DNA from: a virus
DNA length: 49,531 bases
Reading direction: 5' to 3' (one strand)
Virus record (IMG/VR): IMGVR_UViG_3300044998_001094
Location: 1-49,531 of that record
Position numbers and translations under genes: made by a program. Under the pieces are notes generated by a model. The model worked only from the letters and a program-made list of their open reading frames with translations, was not told the origin of the DNA and did no database searches. Of the stretch, positions 1 to 49,531 are shown piece by piece; within the stretch, counting starts at the first letter, position 1; every line of letters starts with the position of its first letter.

Positions 1-52
1 TGAACCCTCCCACAAGGAAGGGGTCATGGTTGTTTTGTTTCGTGGTTTGCAT
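1..52 (-). CDS. First 17 codons of an early 77-residue protein, cut by the window edge
   Basis: These codons duplicate the start of the gene that is complete at 49106-49339. The ATG is at 50-52 (complement), preceded by the purine-rich ribosome site AAAGGAAAACC. It is a partial copy created by the terminal overlap, not a second gene. Confidence 0.8.
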   Translation of the reverse strand, partial: MQTTKQNNHDPFLVGGF

Positions 53-91
53 GGTTTTCCTTTACGTTTCGCCCGGCTGGATTGCCCAAGC

Positions 92-141
92 GTGAGCGAG
101 TGACCGCTCACCTAGCCGGCCACATGAAGGTTGCGGCCGGC
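92..141 (-). promoter_or_regulatory. Double-hairpin leader element, copy A
   Basis: Read on the minus strand, the first hairpin has a 7-bp GCCGGCC/GGCCGGC stem (135-141 with 115-121). Its loop carries the conserved 11-mer CAACCTTCATG (123-133). The second hairpin is GTGAGCG, a 6-nt loop, then CGCTCAC (105-111 with 92-98). The ATG inside the motif opens a five-codon frame (MWPAR, 108-125) whose TGA falls at the edge of the second hairpin. The element lies 72 bp upstream of the 77-residue gene start at position 52. Five other loci share the motif. Confidence 0.75.
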
Positions 142-160
142 ACGGTGAAAGCGCCCGGTT

Positions 161-349
161 TTAGTGTTGCCCAGAGCGGGCCATTTCCAGCCGGCGGAGC
201 GTTTCCGCCATAACGTCTATGACGTATGGGTTTTGAATCGGGTCAAGTGGGTCAGGGTAGATGCAGAACCCGACCCCGTCCGATGTTTCCCAAAGGTCTT
301 TTTCGGATTCGTCGTCCGAGTCTGGAAAGACGCGGAAGCGCCCCGCCAC
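161..349 (-). CDS. Possibly decayed paralogue of the 143-residue protein at 895-1326
   Basis: From a GTG at 349 this frame gives 62 residues. The last 50 or so nearly match the C-terminus of the neighbouring gene at 895-1326; the stretch from GVGFCIYPDP to MAETLRRL is identical. Similarity continues upstream of the GTG (EEYQRAIDRYGC resembles EEIIRAIELNGC), and the frame stays open back to the TGA at 479-481. I found no ATG, GTG or TTG in that extension, although a GGGAGGGG tract lies there. The gene is therefore either a truncated duplicate or uses an unusual start. Function is unknown. Confidence 0.55.
   Translation of the reverse strand: MAGRFRVFPDSDDESEKDLWETSDGVGFCIYPDPLDPIQNPYVIDVMAETLRRLEMARSGQH
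187..280. repeat. Segmental duplication, unit 1 (pair at 924-1017)
   Basis: Bases 187-280 match 924-1017 with only two differences at an offset of 737 bp. The repeat covers the 3' ends of two paralogous minus-strand genes. Because both copies are followed by a hairpin leader element, the duplicated block was probably gene end plus leader. The right end of the window stops inside this repeat. Confidence 0.85.
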
Positions 350-441
350 AACGTGGCAGCCGTAGCGGTCAATCGCGCGCTGGTATTCCTCGCCGAGCCG
401 GCGGCCGCGTGGCCGCCAGTTGGTTGTCGGTTGTGTTAGTT

Positions 442-473
442 TCCCCTCCCGCCCGCCGGGGACCGGGAGGGGA
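442..473 (-). terminator. GC-rich hairpin after the 76-residue gene
   Basis: A perfect 10-bp stem (442-451 with 464-473) with a 12-nt loop lies just downstream, on the minus strand, of the stop at 479. There is no U-run, so it may be an RNA stability or processing hairpin rather than a classical intrinsic terminator. Confidence 0.45.
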
Positions 474-478
474 GGCGT

Positions 479-709
479 TCATTTCCTCAACAGCCGCCGG
501 GTTTGCCGCCGGACTTCGCGCGCCGCGCGGAGGATTGAGGCGGCGCCGGGCCTGTCTATTCGGACCGCGGGGTGGATGCTTTCGTGTTTTGCAAGCGTCG
601 GGTTTGTCTTCGGGCCAAATGTGCAAAGCGTATATGTCTCGCCGCTTATCGCCCTAAAGGTATATGCGGCCGCTCCTCCTGTTTCGTAACGAACCTTAAT
701 GTCGCTCAT
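479..709 (-). CDS. Hypothetical early protein, 76 residues
   Basis: The frame begins MSDIKVRYETGG and ends with an Arg-rich segment (REVRRQTRRLLRK). I do not recognise a family. The protein is short, basic at the C-terminus and has no membrane segment. Upstream lies the three-hairpin leader element at 776-860. A GGAAGGGGG tract sits about 12 nt before the ATG, a looser spacing than in neighbouring genes, so the start is less certain than the stop. Confidence 0.6.
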   Translation of the reverse strand: MSDIKVRYETGGAAAYTFRAISGETYTLCTFGPKTNPTLAKHESIHPAVRIDRPGAASILRAAREVRRQTRRLLRK

Positions 710-775
710 GCGCTCTTGCGCCCCCTTCCGGCGCTTGGCGGCGTTTCGGCCCCGCGTGCCGTGTCCGTTAGGTGC

Positions 776-860
776 TCCCTCCCCGCTGGACAGGGCGGGG
801 AGGGAAGGGAGTGAGCGTTTAGCCGCTCACCTAGCCGGACGCATGAAGGTTGCGTCCGGC
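776..860 (-). promoter_or_regulatory. Triple-hairpin leader element, copy B
   Basis: On the minus strand, hairpin 1 has a perfect 8-bp stem (853-860 with 834-841) and its loop is exactly the 11-mer CAACCTTCATG (842-852). Hairpin 2 is GTGAGCG with CGCTCAC (824-830 with 811-817). Hairpin 3 is an 11-bp GC-rich stem (776-786 with 795-805). The motif ATG opens a five-codon frame (MRPAR, stop at 827-829). Compared with copy A the first stem has changed on both sides (GGCC to GGACG with CGTCC), so pairing is kept. It lies between the genes at 895-1326 and 479-709. Confidence 0.78.
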
Positions 861-894
861 ACGGTGAAGGGAGCCACCTTCAATCCAAGGTGCT

Positions 895-1326
895 TTAATC
901 GGCGTTGTCAGAGCGGGCGTTGTCCAGCCGGCGGAGCGTTTCCGCCATTACGTCTATGACGTATGGGTTTTGAATCGGGTCAAGTGGGTCAGGGTAGATG
1001 CAGAACCCCACCCCGTCTGCCGTTTCCCAGAGTTCGCTCCGGCGGTCGTCCTCGGGAACATCCGGGAAAACCCGGAAGCTACCGGAAACGCAGTAGCAGC
1101 CATTAAGTTCAATGGCCCGGATGATTTCCTCTTTTTCCTTCTCGGTGTCCGGTTCGCCGTAAACCCGGAAATAGTCCTCTTGCTCCCATTCCGCCGTCAG
1201 CCTGACGTTGCCGGCGGATTCCTCCTCCTCGAACTCGACCACCGTCTTTGCTGCCCAAAGGGCGCTTTGGGCGCGCCAACCGGCCGCCCGGAATTCCTTG
1301 TATTTCCTGACGATTTTCTTGTTCAT
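895..1326 (-). CDS. Hypothetical early protein, 143 residues
   Basis: The start at 1326 is chosen because CGAAAGGAACCAC directly precedes the ATG, matching the ribosome site of most early genes here. The protein begins MNKKIVRKYKEF, has an acidic middle (EFEEEESAG, EKEKEE) and ends in a module, from FRVFPD to the C-terminus, that is nearly duplicated in the frame at 161-349. No known domain is recognised. The downstream intergenic region carries leader copy B. Confidence 0.8.
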   Translation of the reverse strand: MNKKIVRKYKEFRAAGWRAQSALWAAKTVVEFEEEESAGNVRLTAEWEQEDYFRVYGEPDTEKEKEEIIRAIELNGCYCVSGSFRVFPDVPEDDRRSELWETADGVGFCIYPDPLDPIQNPYVIDVMAETLRRLDNARSDNAD

Positions 1327-1362
1327 GTGGTTCCTTTCGTGTTTTCCACGGCTCACCATGAG

Positions 1363-1407
1363 CCGGGAGAGGGCGGCGAAAATCGCGTTCCGCCGCCGTG
1401 CTCCCGG
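1363..1407 (-). terminator. Nested GC-rich hairpin between two early genes
   Basis: Outer stem CCGGGAG/CTCCCGG (1363-1369 with 1401-1407) encloses an inner GGCGGCG/CGCCGCC stem (1372-1378 with 1391-1397). It starts two bases past the stop of the 58-residue gene at 1409. No U-run follows, so termination is an inference; an mRNA-stabilising or processing structure is equally possible. Confidence 0.45.
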
Positions 1408-1408
1408 T

Positions 1409-1585
1409 TCAATGCGCCATAGCCTGCCGGTAGCATTCAAACCGCCCCGGCTCAGGCGTCCGGAACAGGGATACCCCCCAACGCCCCAGCCTCAGCGTGT
1501 ACCGCACCGCGTAACGGTGCCGCACACGCTCCAGCCGAAACGCGCGCCCCGGCCATTTTTCGGCCACCAAGAGGAGATTGCTCAT
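1409..1585 (-). CDS. Small basic protein, 58 residues
   Basis: The ATG at 1585 overlaps the TGA of the upstream 35-residue gene (ATGA), the coupling seen at many junctions in this genome. The frame starts MSNLLLVAEKWPGRAFRLER, has many Arg and aromatic residues (RYAVRYTLRLGRWG) and ends QAMAH. A structured hairpin follows immediately. Its short length makes it easy to miss. No family is recognised. Confidence 0.6.
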   Translation of the reverse strand: MSNLLLVAEKWPGRAFRLERVRHRYAVRYTLRLGRWGVSLFRTPEPGRFECYRQAMAH

Positions 1586-1689
1586 TTCAGCCCCACAAGT
1601 TCAAGTTGACCAACGGCCGCCGACGCCGCCGCCTTTTTCCCACCCTTGCCCTTGGTCAAAAAGGCAAACTCCAATTGCTTGATGTTCAT
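1582..1689 (-). CDS. Small lysine-rich peptide, 35 residues
   Basis: CGAAAGGAACGAA before the ATG at 1689 is a strong match to the early-gene ribosome site. The peptide begins MNIKQLEFAFLTKGKGGKK, has an Ala-rich centre and ends ELVGLK. It is the first leftward gene after the control region and is translationally coupled to the 58-residue gene. Function is unknown. Confidence 0.6.
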   Translation of the reverse strand: MNIKQLEFAFLTKGKGGKKAAASAAVGQLELVGLK

Positions 1690-1728
1690 TTCGTTCCTTT
1701 CGTGTTGCGCCCAGCAGGATTGCCAGAC

Positions 1729-1770
1729 GCGAGCGGCTGACCGCTCACCCACCCAATCCCATGAAGGTTG
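1729..1770 (-). promoter_or_regulatory. Leader element, copy C
   Basis: The motif CAACCTTCATG is at 1760-1770 (complement). It is followed on the minus strand by an 8-bp hairpin, GTGAGCGG / TCAG / CCGCTCGC (1741-1748 with 1729-1736). One pair is a G-U wobble only if the minus strand is transcribed, which supports a minus-strand RNA role. The ATG opens a five-codon frame (MGLGG, stop at 1745-1747). Around it, GGATTGCC and flanking bases at 1706-1760 resemble the region next to copy A. It lies 72 bp upstream of the gene starting at 1689. Confidence 0.7.
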
Positions 1771-1802
1771 ACCACCAAAGCCCCACCGCTTAAACTCCAC
1801 CC

Positions 1803-2126
1803 ATGCCCAGAATCGCCCAAACCACCAAAGACGCCATCGCCCAATCCATTATTGCCCGCAACCTTGCCGCAAAACAGTTAGAGATTCTAAGCGAAACGCT
1901 GGAAAAACGACCCCCCAACGACCCTCAAGCCTTGCGTGAGCTTTCATCCGCAATTCATTCGGCCGCAAAGGCTTTTGACATCGCTTGCGAACGCATCCGC
2001 ATCCTCAAAGGTGTTCCGTTGCCCGGCTCGAAGAAGCACGAGCCGAGGCGAAACAAGCGCCCCGGGGAAACCATCGCCTTCCCTGTCCTTCCCCAGTCCG
2101 AGCCGGAGTCAGCCGGCAACGCCTGA
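1803..2126 (+). CDS. Hypothetical helical protein, 107 residues
   Basis: This is the only rightward gene in the left control region. It starts MPRIAQTTKDAIAQSIIARN, is predicted mostly helical to about residue 70 and has a basic, proline-rich tail (GSKKHEPRRNKR). No Shine-Dalgarno site is visible. A basic tail on a helical body could suit DNA binding, and the small terminase subunit is not assigned elsewhere, so this is a weak candidate for it. A 10-bp hairpin at 2350-2377 may end its transcript. Confidence 0.6.
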   Translation: MPRIAQTTKDAIAQSIIARNLAAKQLEILSETLEKRPPNDPQALRELSSAIHSAAKAFDIACERIRILKGVPLPGSKKHEPRRNKRPGETIAFPVLPQSEPESAGNA

Positions 2127-2252
2127 ATCCCCGGGGAAAAACAAGACCCAACCCCAACTTCCAGACCGTCCCCACACCCCCGGGGAGTGCATCGGCTTTT
2201 ACGGACACGGGTCAAAATAAGGAGGCTCCATTTTATCCGCGCTGAAATTTTC

Positions 2253-2308
2253 CCGTGTTTTGGGTTTCCGTGTTTTGGGTGGGGTGTGGTGTGGGGTTGT
2301 GTATTGGG
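2253..2308 (+). repeat. GT-rich tract with 13-bp repeat and possible G-quadruplex
   Basis: CCGTGTTTTGGGT occurs at 2253-2265 and 2268-2280. The following sequence has four G-runs of three or more (2277-2308) with loops of 1, 8 and 9 nt, which could form a weak G-quadruplex on the plus strand. Such strand-biased tracts are common near origins, but that is inference. Confidence 0.5.
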
Positions 2309-2349
2309 TGCTGTGGTGATTGGACGGTGTTGGTGCGTAAGTCCGCCAT

Positions 2350-2377
2350 AAGAAACTCGTGTGGTGGCGAGTTTCTT
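2350..2377. terminator. Perfect 10-bp hairpin, possible terminator of the rightward gene
   Basis: AAGAAACTCG pairs with CGAGTTTCTT around an 8-nt loop. On the plus strand the stem runs into TTTGGGTATTT, a weak U-rich tail. It would suit termination of the transcript from 1803-2126. Confidence 0.45.
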
Positions 2378-2715
2378 TGGGTATTTAACGTTGGTCTTGA
2401 GGTAGCCAGTGACGCGGATAACTGCCGTTGCGGGGTGGCCGTTGGTGTTAGCCTTTGGCCGCCATTTCGGGAGCAGTGTTGCTATGGCCTGCTTGGCGCG
2501 GCGAATTTGCTTGGCGTATGGGCAGGTCCCGCAAGGCCGCCGGCGGGTATCATTGCATCTCCCCGCGCGCTGCTCGGCGGTCTCTGACGTGTTTTTTCAC
2601 CCCCGTTACCGGGGGCCGAGGCGGGATTGATTACCCCCTCATCACCCGGAGGATTCGACAACCGGATGGGCGTTTGACATCTCAAGGAACGTCACCGGGT
2701 ACTTCTGCCCCGGTG

Positions 2716-2750
2716 AAAGGTGCTTCGGTTAAAAAAGGTGCTTCGGTTAA
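2716..2750. repeat. Tandem 17-bp repeat, possible operator pair
   Basis: AAAGGTGCTTCGGTTAA occurs at 2716-2732 and 2734-2750, a period of 18 bp. The pair lies immediately downstream of the -10 of the leftward promoter candidate, where a repressor would block transcription. Two HTH proteins are encoded at 7219-7479 and 10305-10640. Confidence 0.55.
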
Positions 2751-2757
2751 CGTACGA

Positions 2758-2787
2758 CTGATAAATCTTGGTCCGGGTCGGTGTCAA
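2758..2787 (-). promoter_or_regulatory. Leftward sigma70-type promoter candidate
   Basis: On the minus strand a perfect TTGACA (2782-2787) is followed after 18 bp by TATCAG (2758-2763), four of six matches to the -10 consensus. It points towards the early genes that start at 1689 and continue leftwards across the junction. It would also run antisense to the gene at 1803-2126. Only the motif match supports it. Confidence 0.4.
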
Positions 2788-2817
2788 GCGGTTTCCCGGG
2801 GCTTACCCTTTGAATTT

Positions 2818-2991
2818 TCACCCTTTGAATTTATGGCTCCAGCGGGCGATGCGGATGTTTTCGCTGAGTTTTCTGGCGGCCATGCGGATTTTCCAGCCCT
2901 TGGGACTGCGTTTCCTGCGGTAAAGCGGATTGCGCTTCATCGCCCGCAACCGCGCCCGCGCCGACATCAAACTGGTGTGTATCACCGACAT
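2818..2991 (-). CDS. Small highly basic protein, 57 residues
   Basis: The ATG at 2991 follows GAAAGGCTGTC, a good ribosome site. The frame begins MSVIHTSLMSARARLRAMKR and is rich in Arg and Lys throughout (RRKRSPKGWKIRMAARK), ending HKFKG. Such charge suggests nucleic-acid binding. It is the last gene of the leftward glycan/scaffold block, 41 bp after the scaffold stop. Family is not recognised, and the short length lowers certainty. Confidence 0.55.
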   Translation of the reverse strand: MSVIHTSLMSARARLRAMKRNPLYRRKRSPKGWKIRMAARKLSENIRIARWSHKFKG

Positions 2992-3032
2992 GACAGCCTT
3001 TCAATTCAAAGGGGGTTCGACAAAAGGGGGTT

Positions 3033-4397
3033 TTAATCCAAGGCTTTTTTGAGTTCCGCCTTCAGGTCCAGCACCGGGTCCGCGCCGTCGTCCACGCCGG
3101 AACCGCAATCGCCACGCCGGCCGCCACCCGTCGGACCCGACCCGCGCAACTCCGCCAGCGCCGCCTCCAACTCCTGCACCCGCCGCGTCAACAACGCCGC
3201 CTTGCGCGCCATCCTCGGAAACGCCGCCGCCCGGTTCCGCACCTGCGCGTGCAACAACACCCGCTGCTGCGGCGTCAATGCCGCGTTCCGGTCAAACATC
3301 ACGTCCACCAGCTTGTAGCCGTCCTCCAACAACCGGTTCCCCTCCTCGTCCTCCGGGTCCGGCGCAAACCACTCCGGCCGCTTCGCCCGCAAATCCTCGT
3401 TCGCCCTGCGCCACATCGCATCCACCGCCTCCCGCTGCTGCGCCAGCCGCGCCGCCTCCTCCCGCTCCCGCTGCTCCCACGACGCCCGCTCCTGCCGCTC
3501 CGCCGCCACCCGCACCCGCTCCAACCGCTGCAACTCGTTCAAGTGCGAAATCACCAGCGGAGCCTGCTCCTCCCCAAACAAACGCCGCACCTCCATCAAC
3601 GCCCGCCCCTTGGGCAAACGATACAACGCCACAAAATCATCCCACGTCGCCTGCCGCTCCCCCGCCTCGTCGTCCATCACCACCAACTGCTCAATGTCCG
3701 ACCGCGCAAACTCCGCCGCCTCGTTGAACGGCTTGTGATACTTCTCCACAAACTCCGGCGAAAACTCCCGGCGCGCCGCCCGTAACTCGCTCTGCGCCGC
3801 CCGCAACTCCTCCTCCGCCTTCGCCAGCTTCTCCGCCAGCACCGTCGTGTCCTTCCCCCGCGCCTCCGCCTCCGCCAGCTTGCGCTCATACTCCGCCACC
3901 CGCGCCATCGCCTCGTCCCGCTCCGCCTTCGTCCGCTCATAACTCTCCCGCAACTCCTTGGGCGTCCAACCACCACGCCCACCCTCACCACCACGACCAG
4001 AACCCTTGCCCGCCGACAACCTGTCCCCAGCACCCTCCCCGGAAGATTTGTCCGAGGAAGGTTTGTCCGGGGAAGGTTTGTCTGAGGAGGATTTATCCCC
4101 CTTGTCCACGGCGGATTTTTCCCCGGAAACCTTGTCCCCTTTATCCCCCGCCCCGCCAAACTCACGCTCCAACCCGCCGGTCAAACGCGCGTCCAAAGCG
4201 TCAAAATCCAAATCCACACCCCCACCGGAATCCACGGAACGAACATCCCCGGAACGAACATCCCCGGACGTGGACTGCGACGCATCCCCCGGCCCACCAG
4301 CCCCGGCACCACCGCCGGAAGAACCCACGGCATTCTCAGCCGCCACTCCGCCAGACGCCACTCCAGAACCATCCGTGCTCATGTTTTTTTTGCTCAT
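3033..4397 (-). CDS. Scaffold-like capsid assembly protein, 454 residues
   Basis: The N-terminal third is low-complexity Ser/Gly/Asp/Lys with repeated DKPSSDKSS-like units. A long charged coiled coil follows (ERDEAMARVAEYERKLAEAE onwards), then a conserved-looking SPEFVEKYHKPFNEA segment and a Lys-rich end (LKAELKKALD). This disordered, coiled and basic layout is typical of phage scaffolding proteins, which hold the capsid shell during assembly and are then lost. It is far from the capsid gene and on the other strand, which is unusual. Start at 4397 is preferred over an upstream TTG; two 13-bp AT-rich repeats lie just upstream. An internal virion protein is the alternative. Confidence 0.65.
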   Translation of the reverse strand: MSKKNMSTDGSGVASGGVAAENAVGSSGGGAGAGGPGDASQSTSGDVRSGDVRSVDSGGGVDLDFDALDARLTGGLEREFGGAGDKGDKVSGEKSAVDKGDKSSSDKPSPDKPSSDKSSGEGAGDRLSAGKGSGRGGEGGRGGWTPKELRESYERTKAERDEAMARVAEYERKLAEAEARGKDTTVLAEKLAKAEEELRAAQSELRAARREFSPEFVEKYHKPFNEAAEFARSDIEQLVVMDDEAGERQATWDDFVALYRLPKGRALMEVRRLFGEEQAPLVISHLNELQRLERVRVAAERQERASWEQREREEAARLAQQREAVDAMWRRANEDLRAKRPEWFAPDPEDEEGNRLLEDGYKLVDVMFDRNAALTPQQRVLLHAQVRNRAAAFPRMARKAALLTRRVQELEAALAELRGSGPTGGGRRGDCGSGVDDGADPVLDLKAELKKALD

Positions 4398-4404
4398 AAT
4401 CAAA

Positions 4405-4430
4405 TCTTTATCTCAAATCTTTATCTCAAA
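4405..4430. repeat. Tandem 13-bp AT-rich repeat upstream of the scaffold gene
   Basis: TCTTTATCTCAAA occurs twice in tandem (4405-4417, 4418-4430), 8 bp before the scaffold start. It is strikingly AT-rich for this genome. As mRNA it repeats UUUGAGAUAAAGA, which could serve as a ribosome-loading or regulatory site. Confidence 0.6.
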
Positions 4431-4454
4431 GTTCCACCCTCCACACCTCAATCA

Positions 4455-4763
4455 TCAAGACCCACCGGCCCCACCGGCCCCACCGGCCCCACCGGGGGCG
4501 GATTCCCCACGGCCCGGCAGGGAATGATGCAGGCCCGGATTCAAAGCATGCCACCGGTCATCCTCCGGCGTCGTCATCCCCAACAACGCCGACTCATACA
4601 ACAACGCCCCACGCTGCGCCTCCGGCGTCAACCCCGGCGACTCCATCACCTGCGCCCGCACCATGCACAAACACCGCAAAAACCACTCCGCCCCCACCAC
4701 CACCGACAGACGCGAACGCAACTCGTCGTCCTTGAACAGCAAATTCTTGGGACCCGGTTTCAT
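4455..4763 (-). CDS. Hypothetical protein, 102 residues, Gly/Ala-rich tail
   Basis: The protein begins MKPGPKNLLFKDDELRSRLS, has a helical body and a tail of repeated GGA encoded by a 9-bp tandem repeat (about 4461-4497). It lies between the glycosyltransferase block and the scaffold gene, 57 bp before the latter. Its position next to a scaffold-like gene suggests a small virion or assembly protein, but no family is recognised. Confidence 0.7.
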   Translation of the reverse strand: MKPGPKNLLFKDDELRSRLSVVVGAEWFLRCLCMVRAQVMESPGLTPEAQRGALLYESALLGMTTPEDDRWHALNPGLHHSLPGRGESAPGGAGGAGGAGGS

Positions 4764-4831
4764 AAAATCGTGTGCCGCAAAATAAACATGCCACCAGCCC
4801 GACGGCCAGAAAAATCATACCGCCGCCTCAT
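4760..4831 (-). CDS. Possible 23-residue peptide
   Basis: A short frame from 4831 (MRRRYDFSGRRAGG onwards) ends at a TGA that overlaps the ATG of the 102-residue gene, and it bridges an otherwise empty 77-bp gap. Three ATGAGGCGGC-like repeats lie around its start. The overlap is the only support. Confidence 0.25.
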   Translation of the reverse strand: MRRRYDFSGRRAGGMFILRHTIL

Positions 4832-4840
4832 CCCGCCGCC

Positions 4841-5158
4841 TCATGCCGCCGCCTCATGCCGCCGCAACATCCGCCCGCCGCGCGCCCAATACTCCACCCG
4901 CAACCCCAGCGGCTCCAGCATCCGGTGCGGCTTCACCCCGCCCCAGCCCGGCTCCCCCTCCCGCACCCGCAACGCCTCCCGCAACAACGGCAACACCCGC
5001 GCCCCGCCATACACCACAAAACGACCACCCCCGCCACCCTCCTCCCGCATCCGCTCCATCAACGAGTTGACCACCAGCCCCGCCGAGGCCGCCGCCGCAC
5101 CCTCACCAAGCTCAAACAGGTCCTCGCCAAAAAAATGCAACGCCACCATCCGCCTCAC
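4841..5158 (-). CDS. Hypothetical protein, about 105 residues
   Basis: A GTG at 5158 follows GGGGAGGATTTT, a good ribosome site; an ATG at 5149 is the alternative. The frame reads RRMVALHFFGEDLFELGEG, then an Ala-rich helix, a Gly-rich turn and an Arg-rich C-terminus. It follows the GT2 gene by 40 bp in the same operon. No known family is recognised. Confidence 0.6.
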   Translation of the reverse strand: MRRMVALHFFGEDLFELGEGAAAASAGLVVNSLMERMREEGGGGGRFVVYGGARVLPLLREALRVREGEPGWGGVKPHRMLEPLGLRVEYWARGGRMLRRHEAAA

Positions 5159-5198
5159 AAAATCCTCCCCGCCACCAAGACGCCACCTGTTTCCATGC

Positions 5199-6116
5199 TC
5201 AAACAAAATCCTCCAGCGGTTGACCGTCAAAAATGTCCCGCTCCGGCCCCCACGGCCCGGGCCAGCCGCCACCGGCCAGCACCAGTTCACGCAACCGCAC
5301 CAAATCAAACCCGTGCCGCGCCCGCCGAACCCCGCGCAGCAACCCGAGCACGTGATGACTCTTGTCGTTCGGCGACACCCCCTTGTCCTCCCGCCGCATC
5401 ACCGGCAGGGATTTCCCCGGCGTCCGGTCCTGCCACAACCCCATCCCGCTGTCGTAAATCAACGGCAGCCCGTTGTTCGCCAGCATCAACCCGAAAATCG
5501 AATCCTCCATGCCCAAACCGTCGCAGGTCTCGTCAAACCCGTTGACCGCCAGACAAAACTCCAAGGGCATGGCCAGATTGCAACCATAGGTCCACTCGCC
5601 GGGAGCCGGAACCCGCACCGGATGCACCCGGCCCTGTCCCTCCAGCCACAAACGACGGCTGTCCTGCCCGCTCAACACTCCCCCGTCCACCACCACCCCG
5701 CCCTCCACCCGCATCCCCACCCGCTTCTCATAAGACCCGGCCACCGCATAACCACCCTCCATCGCCGCGCGCACCGCGTCCAGCCAGCCCGGAAGCAAAA
5801 CACAACGGTCGTCAATGAACGCAATCCACGGCGTCCGACACAACGCAATGCCCGTGTTGCGCGCGTTGGCCGCCGCCCACCAGTCGCACTTGGTCCGGCG
5901 CGCCGGCCCCTGCCACACCGTCGGCTTGGGCACCACCCGCAACACGTCCCCCGGCCAGCCGGGCGTCGCCAGCGAACGCCGGTCCGCCTGCAAGTCCACC
6001 ACCGTCAGAAAAATCCGGTCGCCCGCCACCATCTGCCGGGCCAGCGACCCGGTAAACCAGCCAAGCTCCGGCTCGTCCCGGCTGGTGATGTAAACAACCG
6101 TCAACGAATGCTTCAT
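5199..6116 (-). CDS. Family 2 glycosyltransferase (GT-A fold), 305 residues
   Basis: The N-terminus (LTVVYITSRDEP) opens a Rossmann-type nucleotide-sugar fold. ARNTGIALCRTPWIAFIDD holds the region around the metal-binding acidic motif, and GLGMEDSIFG supplies the ED motif that commonly carries the catalytic base. These are hallmarks of inverting GT2 enzymes, which move a sugar from a nucleotide donor. No membrane segment is seen, so it is probably cytoplasmic. Its ATG overlaps the stop of the DUF6165 gene, and a methyltransferase and a GT9-GH130 fusion are in the same operon, so it likely acts in a glycan pathway. Substrate is unknown. Confidence 0.85.
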   Translation of the reverse strand: MKHSLTVVYITSRDEPELGWFTGSLARQMVAGDRIFLTVVDLQADRRSLATPGWPGDVLRVVPKPTVWQGPARRTKCDWWAAANARNTGIALCRTPWIAFIDDRCVLLPGWLDAVRAAMEGGYAVAGSYEKRVGMRVEGGVVVDGGVLSGQDSRRLWLEGQGRVHPVRVPAPGEWTYGCNLAMPLEFCLAVNGFDETCDGLGMEDSIFGLMLANNGLPLIYDSGMGLWQDRTPGKSLPVMRREDKGVSPNDKSHHVLGLLRGVRRARHGFDLVRLRELVLAGGGWPGPWGPERDIFDGQPLEDFV

Positions 6117-6574
6117 ACCCCCGCCCCCGTCCCGCCGCCCGCCACCCCGCCGCCCCCGGGACGGTAGTGCTTCACGTCCACACCCGGCCCGCCCCCCACC
6201 AGCGCGTTGAGCCGCTGCTTGGTTTCCGAGCGGGCGTCGTTGGTGCGCGCAATCTGCACCGCCAGCCAGCCCGGCTCCCCCATTTCATCCGCCGACGGCA
6301 TCGCCGAACAACGCGACATCCACCTTCGCAGTTGCTCCTCCAGCACCCAGAGCCGGTGGTTGATGTAGGCCAGCGCGGAAAAAAGCTCGGCCGCCCCCGC
6401 AACCCCCTTCACCTGCGACTCCCAGAGGCGCTCCAGATGCTCCCGCGCCCGCACCACGTCCGGCAACGCCGGACTGTCCGCCGGAAGAAACTTTTCCTTG
6501 AGTTGCAAAATGGTCAGACGGTCCACCAGTTCGCCCGCCGTGATGTTGATTTCAAATTTCATGACCGGAAACAT
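6113..6574 (-). CDS. DUF6165-like protein, 153 residues
   Basis: The start region FEINITAGELVDRLTILQLK matches what I know of the DUF6165 signature, and the helical remainder fits too. DUF6165 proteins commonly sit beside glycosyltransferases, but their biochemical role is not settled. The tail is Gly-rich and low complexity. The stop overlaps the GT2 start, so the two are coupled. An alternative ATG is at 6562; 6574 is kept because AGAGGG lies about 8 bases upstream. Confidence 0.75.
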   Translation of the reverse strand: MFPVMKFEINITAGELVDRLTILQLKEKFLPADSPALPDVVRAREHLERLWESQVKGVAGAAELFSALAYINHRLWVLEEQLRRWMSRCSAMPSADEMGEPGWLAVQIARTNDARSETKQRLNALVGGGPGVDVKHYRPGGGGVAGGGTGAGV

Positions 6575-7222
6575 TCACCGCACCCTCTGGTACACCGCCC
6601 CGGTGCCCAGTGGATACAAAAACTTGAACCCCAGTTCAAACAACCGCCGCTCCGCCCCGCGCACCGCGCCGCCGCTCCAGTCCAAATCGTCCAGCACCGC
6701 CAGACCGCCCACCCGCACCGCCGGCCCGAAACGGTTCACGTCCGCAATCGCCTCCGGCCCGTGGTTGCCGTCACAGTGGAAAATGTCAATCTCCAGCGGA
6801 GGCACCGTGTCCCGCGAACGCCGCCGGACCACCTCCACGTAAGGCGACAACCCCTCACGGTTGACCGCCTCCATGAACTGCCGGTACACCGCCTCGTGGT
6901 CCAGTTGCGACCACCAGCGCGCATTTTCTCCCTCCTGCCCCTCCACACTGGCCTCCGCACTCCACGGGTCAATCCCCATGATGCGCCCCTGCCCAACCTC
7001 GCGCATCGCCAGCGCCATCGGCAACAGGCTCGCCCCGCCAAAAACCCCGATTTCCACCACCCGCCGGGGTCGCAGCGCCAGCACCATCGCCGCCAGCACC
7101 CGCCCGCGCGTGACCTGATGCGGCCACGTGCCGCCGGGCACCGACAACACCAGCCGCTCGACGCGCTCAAACAACGTCGCCAGCCCCCCGTCCGCCGGCC
7201 CCGCCGCCCCGCCGCCACTCAC
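6575..7222 (-). CDS. SAM-dependent methyltransferase, 215 residues
   Basis: RRVVEIGVFGGASLLPMALA is a glycine-rich SAM-binding loop (motif I), followed by GRIMGIDPW (acidic motif II), then IDIFHCDGNH and GLAVLDDLDW, as in the Methyltransf_24 group that often acts on sugars or small molecules. The start is the GTG at 7222, which overlaps the TGA of the preceding HTH gene (GTGA). The same frame stays open upstream but runs inside the HTH gene, so a longer protein is unlikely. Context predicts methylation of a glycan or sugar nucleotide. Confidence 0.8.
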   Translation of the reverse strand: MSGGGAAGPADGGLATLFERVERLVLSVPGGTWPHQVTRGRVLAAMVLALRPRRVVEIGVFGGASLLPMALAMREVGQGRIMGIDPWSAEASVEGQEGENARWWSQLDHEAVYRQFMEAVNREGLSPYVEVVRRRSRDTVPPLEIDIFHCDGNHGPEAIADVNRFGPAVRVGGLAVLDDLDWSGGAVRGAERRLFELGFKFLYPLGTGAVYQRVR

Positions 7223-7479
7223 AGGCTCACCCCCGCCTTCCTGAGACGCAGATAGGACAACAGCGTCATGTTCGCGCTGCCATTCTCGATTTTGCAGAGA
7301 ACCGAGGGCGAAAGGTTCACCCGCTCCGACATCTCCCGCAGCGTCAGCCCCAGCCGCATCCGCTCCTGATAGGCTTTTTCCGCCAGCCCCAGCAACACCC
7401 CGCGCTCCTGTGGCGTGATTTCCACCCGTCCGCGACCACGCCGCAGGCGAAGCCGCCCTGTTTTGATTTTCGATTTCAT
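7219..7479 (-). CDS. XRE-type helix-turn-helix regulator, 86 residues
   Basis: A basic N-terminus (KSKIKTGRLRLRRGRGR) precedes a Cro/C1-type HTH: LTLREMSERVNLSPSVLCKIENG fits helices 2 and 3, with IENG the usual end of the recognition helix. The ATG at 7479 overlaps the stop of the GT9-GH130 gene and its own stop overlaps the methyltransferase start. A regulator inside the glycan operon suggests self-control or control of a late switch. Target sites are unknown. Confidence 0.8.
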   Translation of the reverse strand: MKSKIKTGRLRLRRGRGRVEITPQERGVLLGLAEKAYQERMRLGLTLREMSERVNLSPSVLCKIENGSANMTLLSYLRLRKAGVSL

Positions 7480-9944
7480 ATCTTGAAGCGTGTATAGGAA
7501 ACGCGCGCCAGAGCGCAAGCCGAATCATTCACCCCCAGCGACAAAATCACCCCGCCCAGCGGAGCCTTGGCCGGGTTCGCCCATGTCAGCCCGCCCGGAA
7601 ACACCACCTTCGGCTTGTGATGCGGGCAACTGGCGCGTTCCGTCTCGGTCAGGTCGTCCGCCTCCGAACCGTAAAACAACGGCTGACGGTAAAAGTGCAG
7701 CGGCCGGAAGGGCGGCTCGGATTCCATCAGGGCCAGCCCGCAGTAGTAACGCCGCCGGTGCGGCCTCGGCTCGTTGTCCAGCGTGGAATGAAACACGCGG
7801 AACATCCTGCCGTCCCCCAAGTCCAGCGGCACCGTGCCGCCCTTGGGACAACCAAAGGGCCAGCGCGTCCACCCTTCCAGCGTCAACTGGTCCCCCGCAT
7901 CGTGGTTGATGGTCAGCAGCGACGGGGCCTTGTGCTCCGCCACCACGCGGCCCGAATCGTCAAACTCAACCGTCACCTGCTCGCGCGGGCCTTGTGAATA
8001 AAAGGCGAACAACCGGCCGGACCGCTCGAAAAACACCCAGTTCTTCTCCATCGCCGAGCCGTCGTTGCGGCCGTAATCCGGCCTCCAGACATTGCGCAGC
8101 CGCCACGGCGGGCCGCCCGTCAGTTCGCCCACCCGCACAACGGAACAAAACGGGGCACCCGACACCAGACGGCTGTTGACAAAGGACAGCATCAGGCGGC
8201 CGCGCCACTCGAAGAAACGCGCATCCTCCATCGAATTGAAACCCGGGTCCCCCTCGCACTCCAGCGGAGACACCGAAAGCACGTTGAAGGCGTTGTCCAG
8301 TTCCGCCACGTGCAACGCCGTCGCCGCCCCGGAATGATGCGCCCGGAACACCATCAACAGGGTGTCCCCGCGCCGCCACAGGGTGGGGTTGTAGCCAAAC
8401 CCGCCCAGCGCCGCCCGGCTCAAAATCTTCACCCCGTCGCGCTGCTCGTGCAGCGGCCGGAACAACGGCGGATTCCCCAGTTCCCGCAACGCCTCCACCG
8501 CCAGCCGCTCGTTGTATTCCACCCTCGGCGGCCGCCCGCCCTCCGCAACCTTGGGCGGACGATACAGCCTTTCGCCCAGCCACGGAATATGCACCGCCCC
8601 GTCCCGGCGCAGGTGCTCCATCAAAACCCGGTGCCAGTGGTGGTCGTTGCCCAGAACCAAGTCTGGAATCTCCTTGCGGTGCCGCAGCCACCAGCCTTTC
8701 GTGAAGCAAAAAACATCCACCGCCGGGGAAAACTCCAGCGCCAAGCCGCCGTCCACCACCCGATGCGAGTAGCAGGGCGTGTGATTCAGAATGGCCTTGG
8801 TCGCCGTGCTGTAAAGCGAGACCGGCCCGCGCGTCAGGCATATAATGTCGCGCTCCTCCATGCGCGCGCAGGCGAGATTCAACACGTCCTCCAAAAAAGG
8901 AAGCCGCTGCTTGTCCTTAAAGACCGAGCGCGTGTCCCGGCCCAAGGCCCCAACGTCTATCGGCGAATCCACCCAGATACCCTCGCAGTAGAGCTTGAGC
9001 CACAACGGACGCAACCGGTTGCGCTCCTCGTGGCTGGTCTCGTGGCCCGGATACACGTGAAAGATTCTCGGCATCGTGCCACCAATGGCCACCCTGCGAC
9101 TGATGCAGCCCGGTTGCCCCACCGCGTCCATCCGGTCCAGAAGCTCCACCGCGTGAGCCGGAAACCGGGAATAGCGACACTGAAAAACATGGTTCGGCCG
9201 CCACGGCGAGCCGTTCCACAACAGCGGTTTGTCCTGCGAAATGGCCAGCACCGGAAGCGTCGGCACCGCACGCGCCAGATGCAGCGGCGCGGAGTCCACG
9301 GAAACCAGACAGTGCGCCAGTTCATACAGCCCAATCAGGTCGTAAAGCCGCTCCACCCTGATTTTCGACAGGTCCACCAGCCGGCGCTTGGCCTTGACCC
9401 TCGCCCGCAACAACTCCCACAGCAGTTCGCCATACTCGAACGGAGAGGATTCCGCCGCCGTGTTGACCAGCACAATCTCCAGCCCCTTGCTGCGATTGTA
9501 GGCCAGTTCCCGCAGCAACGGCTTGAACGTGTCGTATTCCCTGTCCCTGTCCCTGCGGTCAAACACCAGCGGCGGGTGCGTTTTCCAGTCTTTGAGCCTG
9601 CCGAAGATGCGCCAAGGCTCCTTGGCAAAGGAATCCGTCAGCGCGTGAGACGCCCCGGACGGAATATAGGTGCAGTCCCGGACATCCTCCTCATTCCCGC
9701 AAACCTGAACACACAGGACATCCTTGGACATCCTGTTGGCCTCGGCCACCGCCCGGCGAATTTCCGTGTGCTCCCCTTGAAACGGCACCACGTCCACGTA
9801 CGAAACACCGTCCAGCAACGGGACATACTTGGACGCCACCATCAGAGCACACCTGCGACCAGCGTCAGCCTCAGCCTTGAGAACCGGGAGGAACAACATC
9901 AAGTCCCCGGCTTTCCCCAGCAAAACGACAAGTTTTTGCTCCAC
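7476..9944 (-). CDS. GT9-like glycosyltransferase fused to a GH130-like propeller, 822 residues
   Basis: Residues 1 to about 270 look like a heptosyltransferase-type GT9 domain: VVLLGKAGDLMLFLPVL matches the N-terminal nucleotide-sugar loop and SVDSAPLHLARA matches the conserved C-terminal acceptor/donor motif. A middle segment (about 290-500) has no clear family. The last 300 residues carry bladed repeats (YNPTLWRRGDTLLMVFRA, EDARFFEWRGRLMLSF, EKNWVFFERSGRLFAFY) as in GH130 mannoside phosphorylases and related beta-propellers. The start is a GTG at 9944. The fusion joins a sugar-adding and a sugar-cleaving or sugar-binding fold; substrate is unknown. The gene heads the glycan operon. Confidence 0.75.
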   Translation of the reverse strand: MEQKLVVLLGKAGDLMLFLPVLKAEADAGRRCALMVASKYVPLLDGVSYVDVVPFQGEHTEIRRAVAEANRMSKDVLCVQVCGNEEDVRDCTYIPSGASHALTDSFAKEPWRIFGRLKDWKTHPPLVFDRRDRDREYDTFKPLLRELAYNRSKGLEIVLVNTAAESSPFEYGELLWELLRARVKAKRRLVDLSKIRVERLYDLIGLYELAHCLVSVDSAPLHLARAVPTLPVLAISQDKPLLWNGSPWRPNHVFQCRYSRFPAHAVELLDRMDAVGQPGCISRRVAIGGTMPRIFHVYPGHETSHEERNRLRPLWLKLYCEGIWVDSPIDVGALGRDTRSVFKDKQRLPFLEDVLNLACARMEERDIICLTRGPVSLYSTATKAILNHTPCYSHRVVDGGLALEFSPAVDVFCFTKGWWLRHRKEIPDLVLGNDHHWHRVLMEHLRRDGAVHIPWLGERLYRPPKVAEGGRPPRVEYNERLAVEALRELGNPPLFRPLHEQRDGVKILSRAALGGFGYNPTLWRRGDTLLMVFRAHHSGAATALHVAELDNAFNVLSVSPLECEGDPGFNSMEDARFFEWRGRLMLSFVNSRLVSGAPFCSVVRVGELTGGPPWRLRNVWRPDYGRNDGSAMEKNWVFFERSGRLFAFYSQGPREQVTVEFDDSGRVVAEHKAPSLLTINHDAGDQLTLEGWTRWPFGCPKGGTVPLDLGDGRMFRVFHSTLDNEPRPHRRRYYCGLALMESEPPFRPLHFYRQPLFYGSEADDLTETERASCPHHKPKVVFPGGLTWANPAKAPLGGVILSLGVNDSACALARVSYTRFKI

Positions 9945-9962
9945 AATTAAACCCGGTTGACG

Positions 9963-10259
9963 TTAAAGGGGCTTGGGTTTCTCCAAGTAGGCGATTATCT
10001 CGGACTCGTCCAACAACCGGACAGGGTGCCCAGAAATCTCAAAAGTGAGACGCTCGCCGGCGTAGGATTCAAACAGGACAACGTGCCCAACCTTTAGCTC
10101 CGTGGATGCTTCTGGACCCAGAGCCACAATTTCCCCCCAGCGCGTCGGGGCCGACCCGGAAGCGGATTCCGGCGAATGAATAATGCTGCTCCCGTGTTCC
10201 TCGGTGAGCGGATACACAAGGATTCGGTTTCCTGTTGGTTTGATGGTCATATCATCCAT
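9963..10259 (-). CDS. groES: GroES-like co-chaperonin
   Basis: TGNRILVYPL, WGEIVALGP, LKVGHVVLF and LDESEIIAYLE match the order and spacing of GroES/Cpn10, including the KVGD-like turn and the C-terminal ESDI-like strand. The length (95-98 residues) is normal. Phage GroES proteins (such as T4 gp31) cap host GroEL to fold the capsid protein. The gene lies next to the divergent capsid operon, which fits that role. Alignment with GroES suggests the true start may be the ATG at 10250. Confidence 0.82.
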   Translation of the reverse strand: MDDMTIKPTGNRILVYPLTEEHGSSIIHSPESASGSAPTRWGEIVALGPEASTELKVGHVVLFESYAGERLTFEISGHPVRLLDESEIIAYLEKPKPL

Positions 10260-10304
10260 GCTGGTGCGGGGCGCACCATCGCGTCCGAAAGGCCACGGAG
10301 GCCC

Positions 10305-10640
10305 TCAGAGTCGCTCATGCTTTTTGTCCGGGTTTTCCTCCATGCGGCCCGAAAGGTGTTCCATCGCCGAGCGTCCCGGCGTGTTCCTCATCTGCTCCCA
10401 GTTGACATAGGTTTTCAGCGGCACCCCGAGAATGTAGGCCGCCTCCTTCTGCAATCTGCTCCCACGCCACGCGCGCAGCCGGCTGGCAAAGGTATCAGCG
10501 CAAAACTGCCGGAGCATCGCCTCCGCCCGCGTCTTGCTCGCCTTCGCCGTGAAGCGCCTCCACGACTCTTTCAGGGCCTTTGGACTTTTGCCGCTGCTCC
10601 GCGCGTACGCCGTCAGAATCATCTTTGTTCTCTGATTCAT
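10305..10640 (-). CDS. Helix-turn-helix DNA-binding protein, 111 residues
   Basis: The C-terminal half (GSRLQKEAAYILGVPLKTYVNWEQ) fits an HTH of the kind that reads AALLGVSRRTVQNWE in repressors and antitoxins. The N-terminus is basic and helical. The gene is divergent from the capsid operon and first in the leftward block, so it is well placed to control the 10641-10907 intergenic region. Upstream, TTGACT and TAGCAA with a 17-bp spacer form a weak promoter. Confidence 0.7.
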   Translation of the reverse strand: MNQRTKMILTAYARSSGKSPKALKESWRRFTAKASKTRAEAMLRQFCADTFASRLRAWRGSRLQKEAAYILGVPLKTYVNWEQMRNTPGRSAMEHLSGRMEENPDKKHERL

Positions 10641-10907
10641 TTCGCCTTGCTACCAGCCCGCCGTGCGCGAGTCAAGTAGTTTTCCGGTTTGCCTGTTGTC
10701 CCCCACGGATATACGTGTCCGACAGACACAACAACCCGGCTCGTCCCCGGGAGGAACGTATCGCCGCTCGTTCCCGGCTGGCGGCTCAGGCTGCCAAGGG
10801 TGCCAGTGCTTCGACTGGCGAACGGCTTCACCGCCGTTGGAGACGCGCCCGCTCCAAGAACCAAAACCGACAACCCGCCCCTGATGGGGCAAAACCAGAA
10901 CAATCTT
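10641..10907. promoter_or_regulatory. Divergent control region between HTH and capsid genes
   Basis: This 267-bp gap separates leftward and rightward operons. It holds a 17-bp sequence repeated exactly at 43192-43208 (10666-10682), a possible rightward promoter (TTGCCT, then TATACG near 10710), a GTGTC/GACAC hairpin just after it and a GCCAGT/ACTGGC hairpin near 10800-10820. The capsid reading frame is open back to 10689, but that part has no ribosome site and an unusual composition, so I treat it as leader. Confidence 0.5.
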
Positions 10908-12251
10908 ATGGCCTTTTCATTTCAACAGTGTCAGCGGATTAACAACATCCTGTTCCGCCGGACTCCCAACTTCGACAAGCGGCTCGTCAAAGACCGATTC
11001 CCGCAGGACTACACCTACTCCAACATGTACCAGCAGGAGAAGTGGCCCTCGGGGACGGGCACCCAGCATGTCCGTGACCGCGTTCACGTGACCGACCCCA
11101 ACGACGATGGTTGCTGGGACATCGTTTCCATCGGCGGCACCGGCTCCGCCACCGGGTGCGATGCCCTCTGCTCGCCCGGCCGCAAGGTGGTGGGCTTCGG
11201 CTCCACGCGCTACACCTACGAGAAGGCGCATCGGGACTACATGACCCCGCCCATGTGCTTCGACCAGATGCGCGACGTGGAGGAAATCGCCGAACAACTC
11301 GCCGCGCGCATGGAGGGCCTCAAGGAGTTGCCGGACGCCATCGTCTCGGGCTACCTCCGGCTGCGCTCGCTCCAGCTTGCCGATGTTATCCATATCTGCG
11401 GCGCGGACACCCTGACCGTGCCGGTGACTTCCGGCATGTTCACCAACAACTGCACGCGCATCAATCTGGGCGGCACGGGCAATTTGCCCACGTCCAAGCT
11501 GACGTTGCAGTATCTCGACAACCACGCCGAGGACCTGCTCTACAACGGCTACTTCCGCAAGGACTTCATGCCGCAGGGCCTCTACGCCATCACCACCGAC
11601 TTCCAGACGCACCGCGACCTGTGCCAGCAGAACCCGTCGCTTTCCAGCATGTGGGCGCTGCCGGACTTCGACAAGGGCGGCAAGTTCTTCGAGTACGGCA
11701 TGATGCAGAAGGCCGTGGGGAACTGGAAGTTCAAGCTCGACCCCGAACCGATGCGCTTCCAGCATGTCGGCGGCGGGGTGCTGGAGCGGGTGCGCGCCTA
11801 CGAAAACGTGGCCACCACGGTGGGCAAGCGGAAGGAGTTCTCGCAAGCCTACAAGAACGCCCCCTACCAGCTTTACCACGTGTTCAACCGCAACGCCTCG
11901 ACGGTTTTTGTCGGGGACATCACGCCCGTTCACCCCGAATTGAAGTTCAACATGGCCCGCTCGCTGCTTGGTCAGTGGTCTTGGAAGTCGCCCCACTACT
12001 TCACGTTCACCGACCCGAACAACGGCACGACCTGCGCCTACCAGAACGACAAGGGCAACTACGGCTACCTGCTCGGCGAGTTTGAACTGGGCATGGTGAC
12101 GGACTACCCCGAAATCGAAATGTGGATTCTCGCTTTGCGCGAACCGCAGGGCATTGTCAACCTGCCCCGCTCGGCGGCCGTGCCCTCCGTGGTCACGCAA
12201 TCGCTGGCTCCGTACAACTCGGGGCTTTGCGCTGGCGACGACGAGGACTAA
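10908..12251 (+). CDS. Major capsid protein candidate, 447 residues
   Basis: The protein starts MAFSFQQCQRINN and has the length and mixed alpha/beta composition of a phage coat protein. It is followed by a strong hairpin, an intrinsic terminator and two small acidic accessory genes, the usual neighbourhood of a coat gene. Features include Gly-rich loops (NLGGTGNLPTS) and an acidic end (CAGDDED). I do not match it to a named family with certainty. An in-frame ATG at 10884 and an open frame to 10689 exist; neither site has a ribosome-binding sequence. Confidence 0.75.
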   Translation: MAFSFQQCQRINNILFRRTPNFDKRLVKDRFPQDYTYSNMYQQEKWPSGTGTQHVRDRVHVTDPNDDGCWDIVSIGGTGSATGCDALCSPGRKVVGFGSTRYTYEKAHRDYMTPPMCFDQMRDVEEIAEQLAARMEGLKELPDAIVSGYLRLRSLQLADVIHICGADTLTVPVTSGMFTNNCTRINLGGTGNLPTSKLTLQYLDNHAEDLLYNGYFRKDFMPQGLYAITTDFQTHRDLCQQNPSLSSMWALPDFDKGGKFFEYGMMQKAVGNWKFKLDPEPMRFQHVGGGVLERVRAYENVATTVGKRKEFSQAYKNAPYQLYHVFNRNASTVFVGDITPVHPELKFNMARSLLGQWSWKSPHYFTFTDPNNGTTCAYQNDKGNYGYLLGEFELGMVTDYPEIEMWILALREPQGIVNLPRSAAVPSVVTQSLAPYNSGLCAGDDED

Positions 12252-45039: not shown

Positions 45040-45065
45040 GGTGTTCCTTTCCATTTGTACAGTTC

Positions 45066-45076
45066 CATGAAGGTTG
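45066..45076 (-). promoter_or_regulatory. Leader motif copy D (CAACCTTCATG)
   Basis: The 11-mer lies in a CAGTCC/GGA(A)CTG stem with one bulge (about 45060-45081). Its ATG opens a 10-codon frame, MELYKWKGTP, whose TGA overlaps the ATG of the 98-residue gene. This copy therefore directly couples a leader peptide to its gene. Confidence 0.65.
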
Positions 45077-45086
45077 GACTGCCGGG

Positions 45087-46699: not shown

Positions 46700-46710
46700 C
46701 ATGAAGGTTG
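46700..46710 (-). promoter_or_regulatory. Leader motif copy E (CAACCTTCATG)
   Basis: The motif lies 117 bp before the gene start at 46583. Its ATG opens a longer frame (MELEGWNIEHGG onward) that overlaps the gene out of frame. No clear stem encloses this copy. The GAA that follows is shared with copies D and F. Confidence 0.55.
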
Positions 46711-48346: not shown

Positions 48347-48382
48347 TTGGGGAACAGTCAGGCGGCCCCCCCCTTGCAATTC

Positions 48383-48393
48383 CATGAAGGTTG
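48383..48393 (-). promoter_or_regulatory. Leader motif copy F (CAACCTTCATG)
   Basis: The motif ATG is in frame with the AAA+ gene and would add 35 residues (MELQGGG onward) before its normal ATG at 48280. Only a 4-bp GCAA/TTGC stem surrounds it. Whether this ATG is used is unknown. Confidence 0.55.
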
Positions 48394-48407
48394 CGGTTGG
48401 GGGTGCC

Positions 48408-49105: not shown

Positions 49106-49339
49106 TTAGGTGTTGGTCTGGACTGCCAGCGGTTGAACGTCCCAGCCGTTGGCGCGGGCGAGGCGTACGGCGCGGTCCGCCCACCAATTGCCGGACTCGA
49201 TGCGCCCGGCGAGGATTTCGGGCGCGACCCTTTGGACGGCCGCGTAAACGTCACGGTACCCCGTGGCGTTGCTATCCGGTTGCAGCTTGAACCCTCCCAC
49301 AAGGAAGGGGTCATGGTTGTTTTGTTTCGTGGTTTGCAT
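49106..49339 (-). CDS. Hypothetical early protein, 77 residues
   Basis: AAAGGAAAACC precedes the ATG at 49339 (also seen at the left edge). The protein begins MQTTKQNNHDPFLVGGFKLQ and has a helical end with WWADRAVRLARANGWDVQPL. It is preceded by leader copy A. No family is recognised. Confidence 0.72.
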   Translation of the reverse strand: MQTTKQNNHDPFLVGGFKLQPDSNATGYRDVYAAVQRVAPEILAGRIESGNWWADRAVRLARANGWDVQPLAVQTNT

Positions 49340-49531
49340 GGTTTTCCTTTACGTTTCGCCCGGCTGGATTGCCCAAGCGTGAGCGAGTGACCGCTCACCT
49401 AGCCGGCCACATGAGGGTTGCGGCCGGCACGGTGAAAGCGCCCGGTTTTAGTGTTGCCCAGAGCGGGCCATTTCCAGCCGGCGGAGCGTTTCCGCCATAA
49501 CGTCTATGACGTATGGGTTTTGAATCGGGTC
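49288..49531. repeat. Right copy of the contig-terminal direct repeat
   Basis: It is identical to 1-244 except for G at 49415 where the left copy has A at 128. That base is within the leader motif, so here it reads CAACCCTCATG on the minus strand, a possible population variant or sequencing difference. Confidence 0.9.

What the first reader, a model, noticed from the sequence alone, without database searches (positions are those of the whole stretch)
92..860. A repeated leader motif, CAACCTTCATG, displayed in hairpin loops ahead of six early genes
The exact 11-mer occurs at 123-133, 842-852, 1760-1770, 45066-45076, 46700-46710 and 48383-48393, always on the minus strand and 25-135 bp before an early gene start. 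In copies A and B it forms the loop of a GC stem whose two sides have changed together, so pairing is conserved while sequence is not. In copies A, B and C a second GTGAGCG-type hairpin follows, and in copy C one pair is a G-U wobble only if the minus strand is the RNA. No motif of this kind is known to me. Inference: a phage-wide cis-acting RNA element that sets early gene expression.
Basis: partly seen in the sequence, partly recalled or inferred. Interest (0 to 1): 0.85.

Follow-up and report, generated by a model that had tools for sequence, protein, structure and literature searches.

The report
Phage-private repeated signal between early genes

Summary
The repeat is real. CAACCTTCATG occurs six times, exact, at the stated places, all on the minus strand (0 expected). 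The window is a circular phage genome; the copies lie in 6 of the 9 gaps of at least 40 nt in the first part of one leftward operon, and in 0 of 6 long gaps further down. The conserved unit is longer than reported: YYG at +14 to +16 and a GGTG-like box at +21 to +24. The hairpin claim is only partly right. Strong stems enclose the motif in A and B, which are duplicates; D has a weak bulged stem; F folds differently; C and E have none; the six share no fold. The element is private to this phage: six phages keep the gene behind copy D without it, a relative has iterated sigma-70-like promoters in two of the same gaps, and Rfam finds nothing. Iterated directional intergenic motifs are already known (SAS/ESAS, cluster EC repeats, stoperators). 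Whether it acts as RNA (slightly favoured) or DNA is unresolved. A side finding is better supported: another phage (L060) has eight copies of a strongly covarying RNA leader hairpin.

The parts
123..133 (-). Copy A of CAACCTTCATG, before the ORF starting at 52
   Evidence: exact match
115..141 (-). Hairpin 1 of copy A: GCCGGCCGC-AACCTTCAT-GTGGCCGGC, with one G-U pair on the minus strand
   Evidence: 9 bp from C1-G11 outward, motif loop unpaired, z -4.2
92..111 (-). Hairpin 2 of copy A: GTGAGCG-GTCACT-CGCTCAC
842..852 (-). Copy B of CAACCTTCATG, before the ORF at 709-479
   Evidence: exact match
834..860 (-). Hairpin 1 of copy B: GCCGGACGC-AACCTTCAT-GCGTCCGGC
   Evidence: 9 bp, z -5.2; one compensatory pair against A
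811..830 (-). Hairpin 2 of copy B: GTGAGCG-GCTAAA-CGCTCAC (loop differs from A, stem identical)
1760..1770 (-). Copy C of CAACCTTCATG, at the head of the leftward operon, before the ORF at 1689-1582; no stem around the motif
   Evidence: exact match; z -0.2
1729..1748 (-). Hairpin 2 of copy C: GTGAGCG-GTCAGC-CGCTCGC, one U-G pair valid only on the minus strand
45066..45076 (-). Copy D of CAACCTTCATG, before the ORF at 45039-44743
   Evidence: exact match
45060..45081 (-). Weak bulged stem around copy D: CAGTCC-AACCTTCAT-GGaACTG
   Evidence: z -1.2
46700..46710 (-). Copy E of CAACCTTCATG, before the ORF at 46583-45627; no stem around the motif
   Evidence: exact match; z +0.7
48383..48393 (-). 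Copy F of CAACCTTCATG, before the AAA ATPase gene at 48280-46718
   Evidence: exact match; Pfam AAA E 4e-13
48369..48403 (-). Different hairpin at copy F (CCCCC..GCAACC-UUCAU-GG..UUGC..GGGGG) that pairs half of the motif
   Evidence: z -3.0
49288..49531 (.). Terminal overlap identical to 1-244 except one base (128 A, 49415 G, inside the motif); shows the genome is circular and holds copy A a second time (49410-49420)

Best explanation
A private, iterated, directional regulatory signal of about 25 nt (CAACCTTCATG-N3-YYG-N4-GGTG) placed in most long gaps of the first part of the leftward operon. It is most likely read in the RNA: a phage or host factor recognises the single-stranded CAACCUUCAUG in the nascent leader of each gene or gene group and adjusts expression at that gap, by letting polymerase or ribosomes pass the GC-rich hairpin that follows in 5 of the 6 copies, or by guiding processing or translation. 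A stem that fixes the motif in a loop is an optional refinement in A and B (weakly in D). Shown here: the copies, their orientation and placement, the extended consensus, the stems of A and B, the lack of a common fold, and absence from the relatives tested. Inferred: transcription timing, a trans-acting factor, and the RNA level. That it is some private directional regulatory signal I hold at about 0.85; the confidence below is for the RNA-level reading.
For: Six exact copies, and no 1-mismatch copy in the operon other than the duplicated terminus, 0 expected. One strand only, in gaps, 6 of 9 proximal gaps and 0 of 6 distal. Invariant G at +16 and +24 and 5-of-6 G, G, T at +21 to +23. The motif loop is unpaired in A, B and D. 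A and B diverged in stem 1 and loop 2 while all 16 pairs and the motif stayed. The wobble pairs in hairpin 1 of A and hairpin 2 of C are valid only in minus-strand RNA. No minus-strand sigma-70-like site in 43.5-49.5 kb or 1-3.1 kb by the scan tool. An independent phage with the same ATPase family has an iterated leader that covaries as RNA (L060), so leaders of this kind can work as RNA.
Against: No consensus structure across the six copies: 5 weak pairs, no compensatory change. Stems absent in C and E. Gaps without the motif fold about as stably as gaps with it, so the downstream hairpins are not specific to it. No RNA-binding protein was recognised. Conserved positions at 0-10, 14-16 and 21-24, about two helical turns, would also suit a DNA-binding protein.
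Confidence: 0.42

Rival explanations
1. A DNA-level directional site: an operator or stoperator-like site, or an activator or promoter element, bound in the gaps of the operon by a phage or host protein.
For: Copy C lies in the divergent gap at the head of the leftward operon, where a promoter is expected. In the TerL relative G004 two of the same genes (AAA ATPase and the 46583 homologue) are preceded by an exactly repeated sigma-70-like promoter TTGACAACGAACAAGC. Several phages with the same ATPase carry iterated palindromes or promoters (L075, L083, L093, L081). Stoperators are asymmetric, oriented with transcription and intergenic (PMC9283540). No shared RNA fold.
Against: GC-rich surroundings and no -10-like box at fixed spacing. 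In copy D the Shine-Dalgarno stretch overlaps the +24 region, so a two-box promoter using it would start inside or after the ribosome site. No integrase, repressor or helix-turn-helix protein recognised in the proteins scanned. The stems of A and B remain unexplained.
Confidence: 0.36
2. A repeat spread by duplication with no function of its own (a recombination boundary or cassette relic).
For: A and B are clear duplicates including the 3' end of the upstream gene. The element is private to one genome. Iterated private 12-mers are common in this module: 20 of 80 loci against 0 of 80 shuffled sequences.
Against: The 11-mer is identical in all six copies while the flanks have largely diverged, which recent neutral copying does not explain. 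Orientation and gap placement are uniform.
Confidence: 0.12
3. A leader mini-ORF starting at the ATG that ends the motif (MWPAR, MRPAR, MGLGG, MELYKWKGTP).
For: A, B and C have ATG, four codons and TGA; D ends in ATGA overlapping the next start.
Against: In E the frame runs 336 codons through the next gene out of frame, and in F it is fused in frame to the ATPase. No Shine-Dalgarno before the ATG, and the peptides are not conserved.
Confidence: 0.04

Closest known systems
Start-Associated Sequences (SAS/ESAS) of cluster K mycobacteriophages and cluster EF Microbacterium phages
   Same: Short, highly conserved, asymmetric, one orientation, non-structural genes only, absent from most other phages; about half (cluster K) carry upstream inverted repeats (PMC3203893, PMC7302621).
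   Different: SAS lies 3-7 bp before the start codon and contains the ribosome-binding core; this motif lies 27-133 nt upstream, contains no Shine-Dalgarno core, and the sequence is unrelated.
18-bp asymmetric repeat of Microbacterium cluster EC phages (also EG, EI repeats)
   Same: Asymmetric motif iterated in small intergenic regions, many among non-structural genes; function unknown (PMC7302621).
   Different: Sequence unrelated; there at 22-30 bp before starts, tolerant of several mismatches, and conserved across a cluster.
Stoperators of cluster A mycobacteriophages
   Same: Asymmetric 13-mer, intergenic, oriented with transcription (PMC9283540).
   Different: Bound by a known repressor of temperate phages and number over twenty; no repressor recognised here, and six copies.
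HK022 put sites and lambda nut sites (from memory)
   Same: Hairpins in early leader RNA; put has two adjacent hairpins, as A and B do.
   Different: One or two sites per operon, structure essential; here six sites, and structure absent in half.
T7 early RNase III sites; T4 PeSL cassettes (from memory)
   Same: Hairpins in the gaps of an early operon (T7); iterated promoter plus stem-loop cassettes (T4-type phages).
   Different: No long duplex around C, D, E; no promoter recognised beside the copies.

Membership tests
SAS/ESAS | Copy within a few nt of the start codon, containing the AGGAG core | tested here: not met
   Distances 27-133 nt; the motif has no such core (PMC3203893)
SAS/ESAS | Asymmetric, one orientation, confined to non-structural genes | tested here: met
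   6 of 6 on the minus strand in the leftward operon
Stoperator | Asymmetric intergenic sites oriented with transcription | tested here: met
Stoperator | Cognate repressor encoded by the phage | tested here: inconclusive
   No repressor, HTH or integrase in the proteins scanned, but most early proteins match no family
Conserved structured RNA family | Common secondary structure supported by covariation across copies | tested here: not met
   RNAalifold -0.91 kcal/mol, 0 compensatory pairs over six copies; the A/B structure keeps 66% of cells against 59% in shuffles, mostly from A and B themselves
Conserved structured RNA family | Present in homologous phages or in Rfam | tested here: not met
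   Rfam 0; absent beside homologous genes
Sigma-70 promoter | TTGACA and TATAAT at 16-18 nt near the copies on the minus strand | tested here: not met
   0 minus-strand sites in 43500-49531 and in 1-3100 by the scan tool
Intrinsic terminator | GC stem followed by a T run | tested here: not met
   No minus-strand terminator-like site at any copy in the scans
HK022 put-type antitermination site | RNA-dependent readthrough of terminators | not testable with these tools
   needs a transcription assay

The most novel reading that the evidence does not exclude
A factor made by the phage reads one single-stranded RNA word, CAACCUUCAUG, in each leader of an early operon, so that a whole set of genes is controlled gap by gap at the RNA level; related phages replace the word with their own signal (promoter, operator, or covarying RNA hairpin), so the control layer turns over faster than the genes.
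Probability: 0.25. Interest if true: 0.62.

Novelty: new member of a known kind. Interest (0 to 1): 0.33.

Why it matters
If real as a control signal, it is a compact, private regulatory code in a phage without close isolates. The comparison shows that phages sharing the same ATPase module place different iterated signals in their gene gaps, which would make the turnover of phage control elements testable. The element alone is one more unexplained iterated phage motif; the RNA hairpin found in L060 is the better candidate for a new RNA element.

Tried and rejected
IMG/VR scan with CAACCTTCATGGAAYTG: 7 stretches, single copies that overlap ORFs in unrelated sequences. A/B/C-type pattern: none. 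Rfam at gathering and at E 1: none. Six relatives by the gene behind copy D, ten by TerL, 80 viral and 80 genome loci by the ATPase: no iterated copy of the motif. The single copy in G011 is isolated and its surroundings read like coding sequence (ORF not tested). 388 genomes of the phylum of a Verrucomicrobiaceae genome: a first pattern was off by one base and is void; repeated correctly it gave 0; the host is not known, so this says little. Leader mini-ORF rejected on frames. Two-box promoter made unlikely by copy D. N4-type hairpin promoter considered because of the 2471-aa protein; no RNA polymerase family matched it, and half the copies lack a stem. Paper searches for repeated hairpin leaders in phages gave nothing closer than SAS.

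Full report
What the window is. The record is a phage genome of 49,287 bp with a 244-bp terminal overlap (1-244 = 49288-49531, one mismatch, at 128/49415, inside motif copy A), so it is circular. It encodes a DnaB-type helicase, a sliding-clamp relative, a PD-(D/E)XK nuclease and an AAA ATPase. The 20621-22456 gene was read as the large terminase subunit from its sequence; no family matched it. Most other proteins match nothing in Pfam or PHROGs. There is no near match to bases 1-20000 in the phage collection. The nearest relatives by the presumed terminase are IMG/VR contigs at 56-61%.

The repeat. CAACCTTCATG occurs six times, exact, on the minus strand, at the stated places; none is expected by chance. 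On the circle all copies lie in one leftward run of genes, in the order C, B, A, F, E, D. They sit in 6 of 9 gaps of at least 40 nt in the first part of that run and in none of the 6 long gaps further down (gene calls are by ORF and codon usage). The run is called early only by inference from gene content and position. Aligned without gaps, the copies also share Y-Y-G at +14 to +16 and a GGTG-like box at +21 to +24 (G+16 and G+24 in 6 of 6; G, G, T at +21 to +23 in 5 of 6). Beyond that only scattered columns agree, near the number expected by chance. A sequence-only model of the six leaders finds those six and the terminal copy, and nothing in the relatives tested.

The hairpins. A and B close the motif with a 9-bp GC stem, extended by a 6-bp outer helix (TTCACC/GGTGAG) that competes with hairpin 2 for GGTGAG. 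They differ by one compensated pair and one G-U to G-C change; the four further differences all fall in the loop of hairpin 2. Seven random substitutions of the same types keep all 16 pairs in 2.7% of trials, and keep the motif too in 0.3%. A and B are duplicates that also share 127 bp upstream at 92%, so this is one comparison. C has only hairpin 2. D has a weak bulged stem. F forms another hairpin that pairs half of the motif. E has no stem. Consensus folding of the six gives five weak pairs and no compensation. The title of the finding is therefore too broad.

Conservation elsewhere. The gene 27 nt behind copy D is kept at 60-66% identity in six other phages; none has the 11-mer, even with one mismatch, in the DNA held around it. 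G004, which keeps the genes behind D, E and F, has instead an exact repeat TTGACAACGAACAAGC with a -10-like hexamer 17 nt after TTGACA, before the ATPase and the 46583 homologue. Among 80 viral loci with the ATPase, 20 carry some 12-mer at four or more spaced places against 0 of 80 shuffled sequences. These are of several kinds: extended ribosome sites, promoters, palindromes, unexplained words, some probably coding repeats, and one RNA hairpin.

The RNA hairpin of L060. In IMGVR_UViG_3300009034_000045 a 62-65-nt leader occurs seven times in 3.6 kb, each followed by AAAAGGAGGACGG and a start codon. Its 26-pair stem has 11 pairs with changes on both sides; 0 of 500 shuffles reach its pairing or covariation score. 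A covariance model finds an eighth, weaker copy at 13335-13394 and none in 75 other sources. Rfam has nothing like it. It is a benchmark: where an iterated leader does act as a folded RNA the signal is plain, and the window's six copies do not show it.

Mechanism. What is well supported is a directional signal private to this phage, under sequence constraint, in the leftward operon. RNA is slightly favoured by the strand-specific wobbles, the unpaired loop in A, B and D, the kept pairs in A/B, and the lack of a recognisable promoter at the copies. DNA recognition remains close behind because the constraint is on sequence, extends over two turns, includes the operon head, and because a relative has promoters in two of the same gaps. 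No computation here separates the two.

Known kinds. Iterated, asymmetric, intergenic motifs among non-structural genes are described for cluster K mycobacteriophages and Microbacterium clusters EC, EF and EI, and inverted repeats for clusters O and EG, mostly with unknown function (PMC3203893, PMC7302621); stoperators are a solved case at DNA level (PMC9283540). The window's motif fits this kind in its layout and is not a member of SAS by position. The put, nut, T7 RNase III and T4 PeSL comparisons rest on memory.

Noticed in passing
L060:8249-11805 (+), eighth copy 13335-13394 (IMGVR_UViG_3300009034_000045): Seven to eight copies of a 62-65-nt leader hairpin (26 pairs, 11 with compensatory changes), each before a ribosome site and start codon, around the same AAA ATPase; no Rfam match. 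Better supported as an RNA element than the finding itself.
   Followed up: partly
L027 minus strand (G004), about 13.6 kb and 16.7 kb: Exactly repeated sigma-70-like promoter TTGACAACGAACAAGC before two early genes in a TerL relative.
   Followed up: partly
L110, L106, L072, L075, L083, L093, L081: Other phages with the same ATPase carry their own iterated words (TGATTCTAGGGGTGGG, TTCGGGCTTAGGT, CCGCCAGCGGGA, TTGGAAACGTTTCC, CCAAACGTTTGG, TGATAGTATCAT, TTCTTGACAA); in L110 some copies cap a hairpin.
   Followed up: partly
128 and 49415: The two ends of the assembled contig overlap by 244 bp but differ by one base, and that base lies in the motif (CAACCTTCATG against CAACCCTCATG): strain variation or an assembly error.
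   Followed up: no
1760-1803: The rightward ORF at 1803 has a sigma-70-like site (TTGACC, 17, TAAACT) whose -35 overlaps the end of motif copy C.
   Followed up: no
2758-2787, minus: Best leftward sigma-70-like site of the region (TTGACA, 18, TATCAG), about 1 kb before copy C.
   Followed up: no
29921-37336: A 2471-aa protein with no match in Pfam or PHROGs.
   Followed up: no
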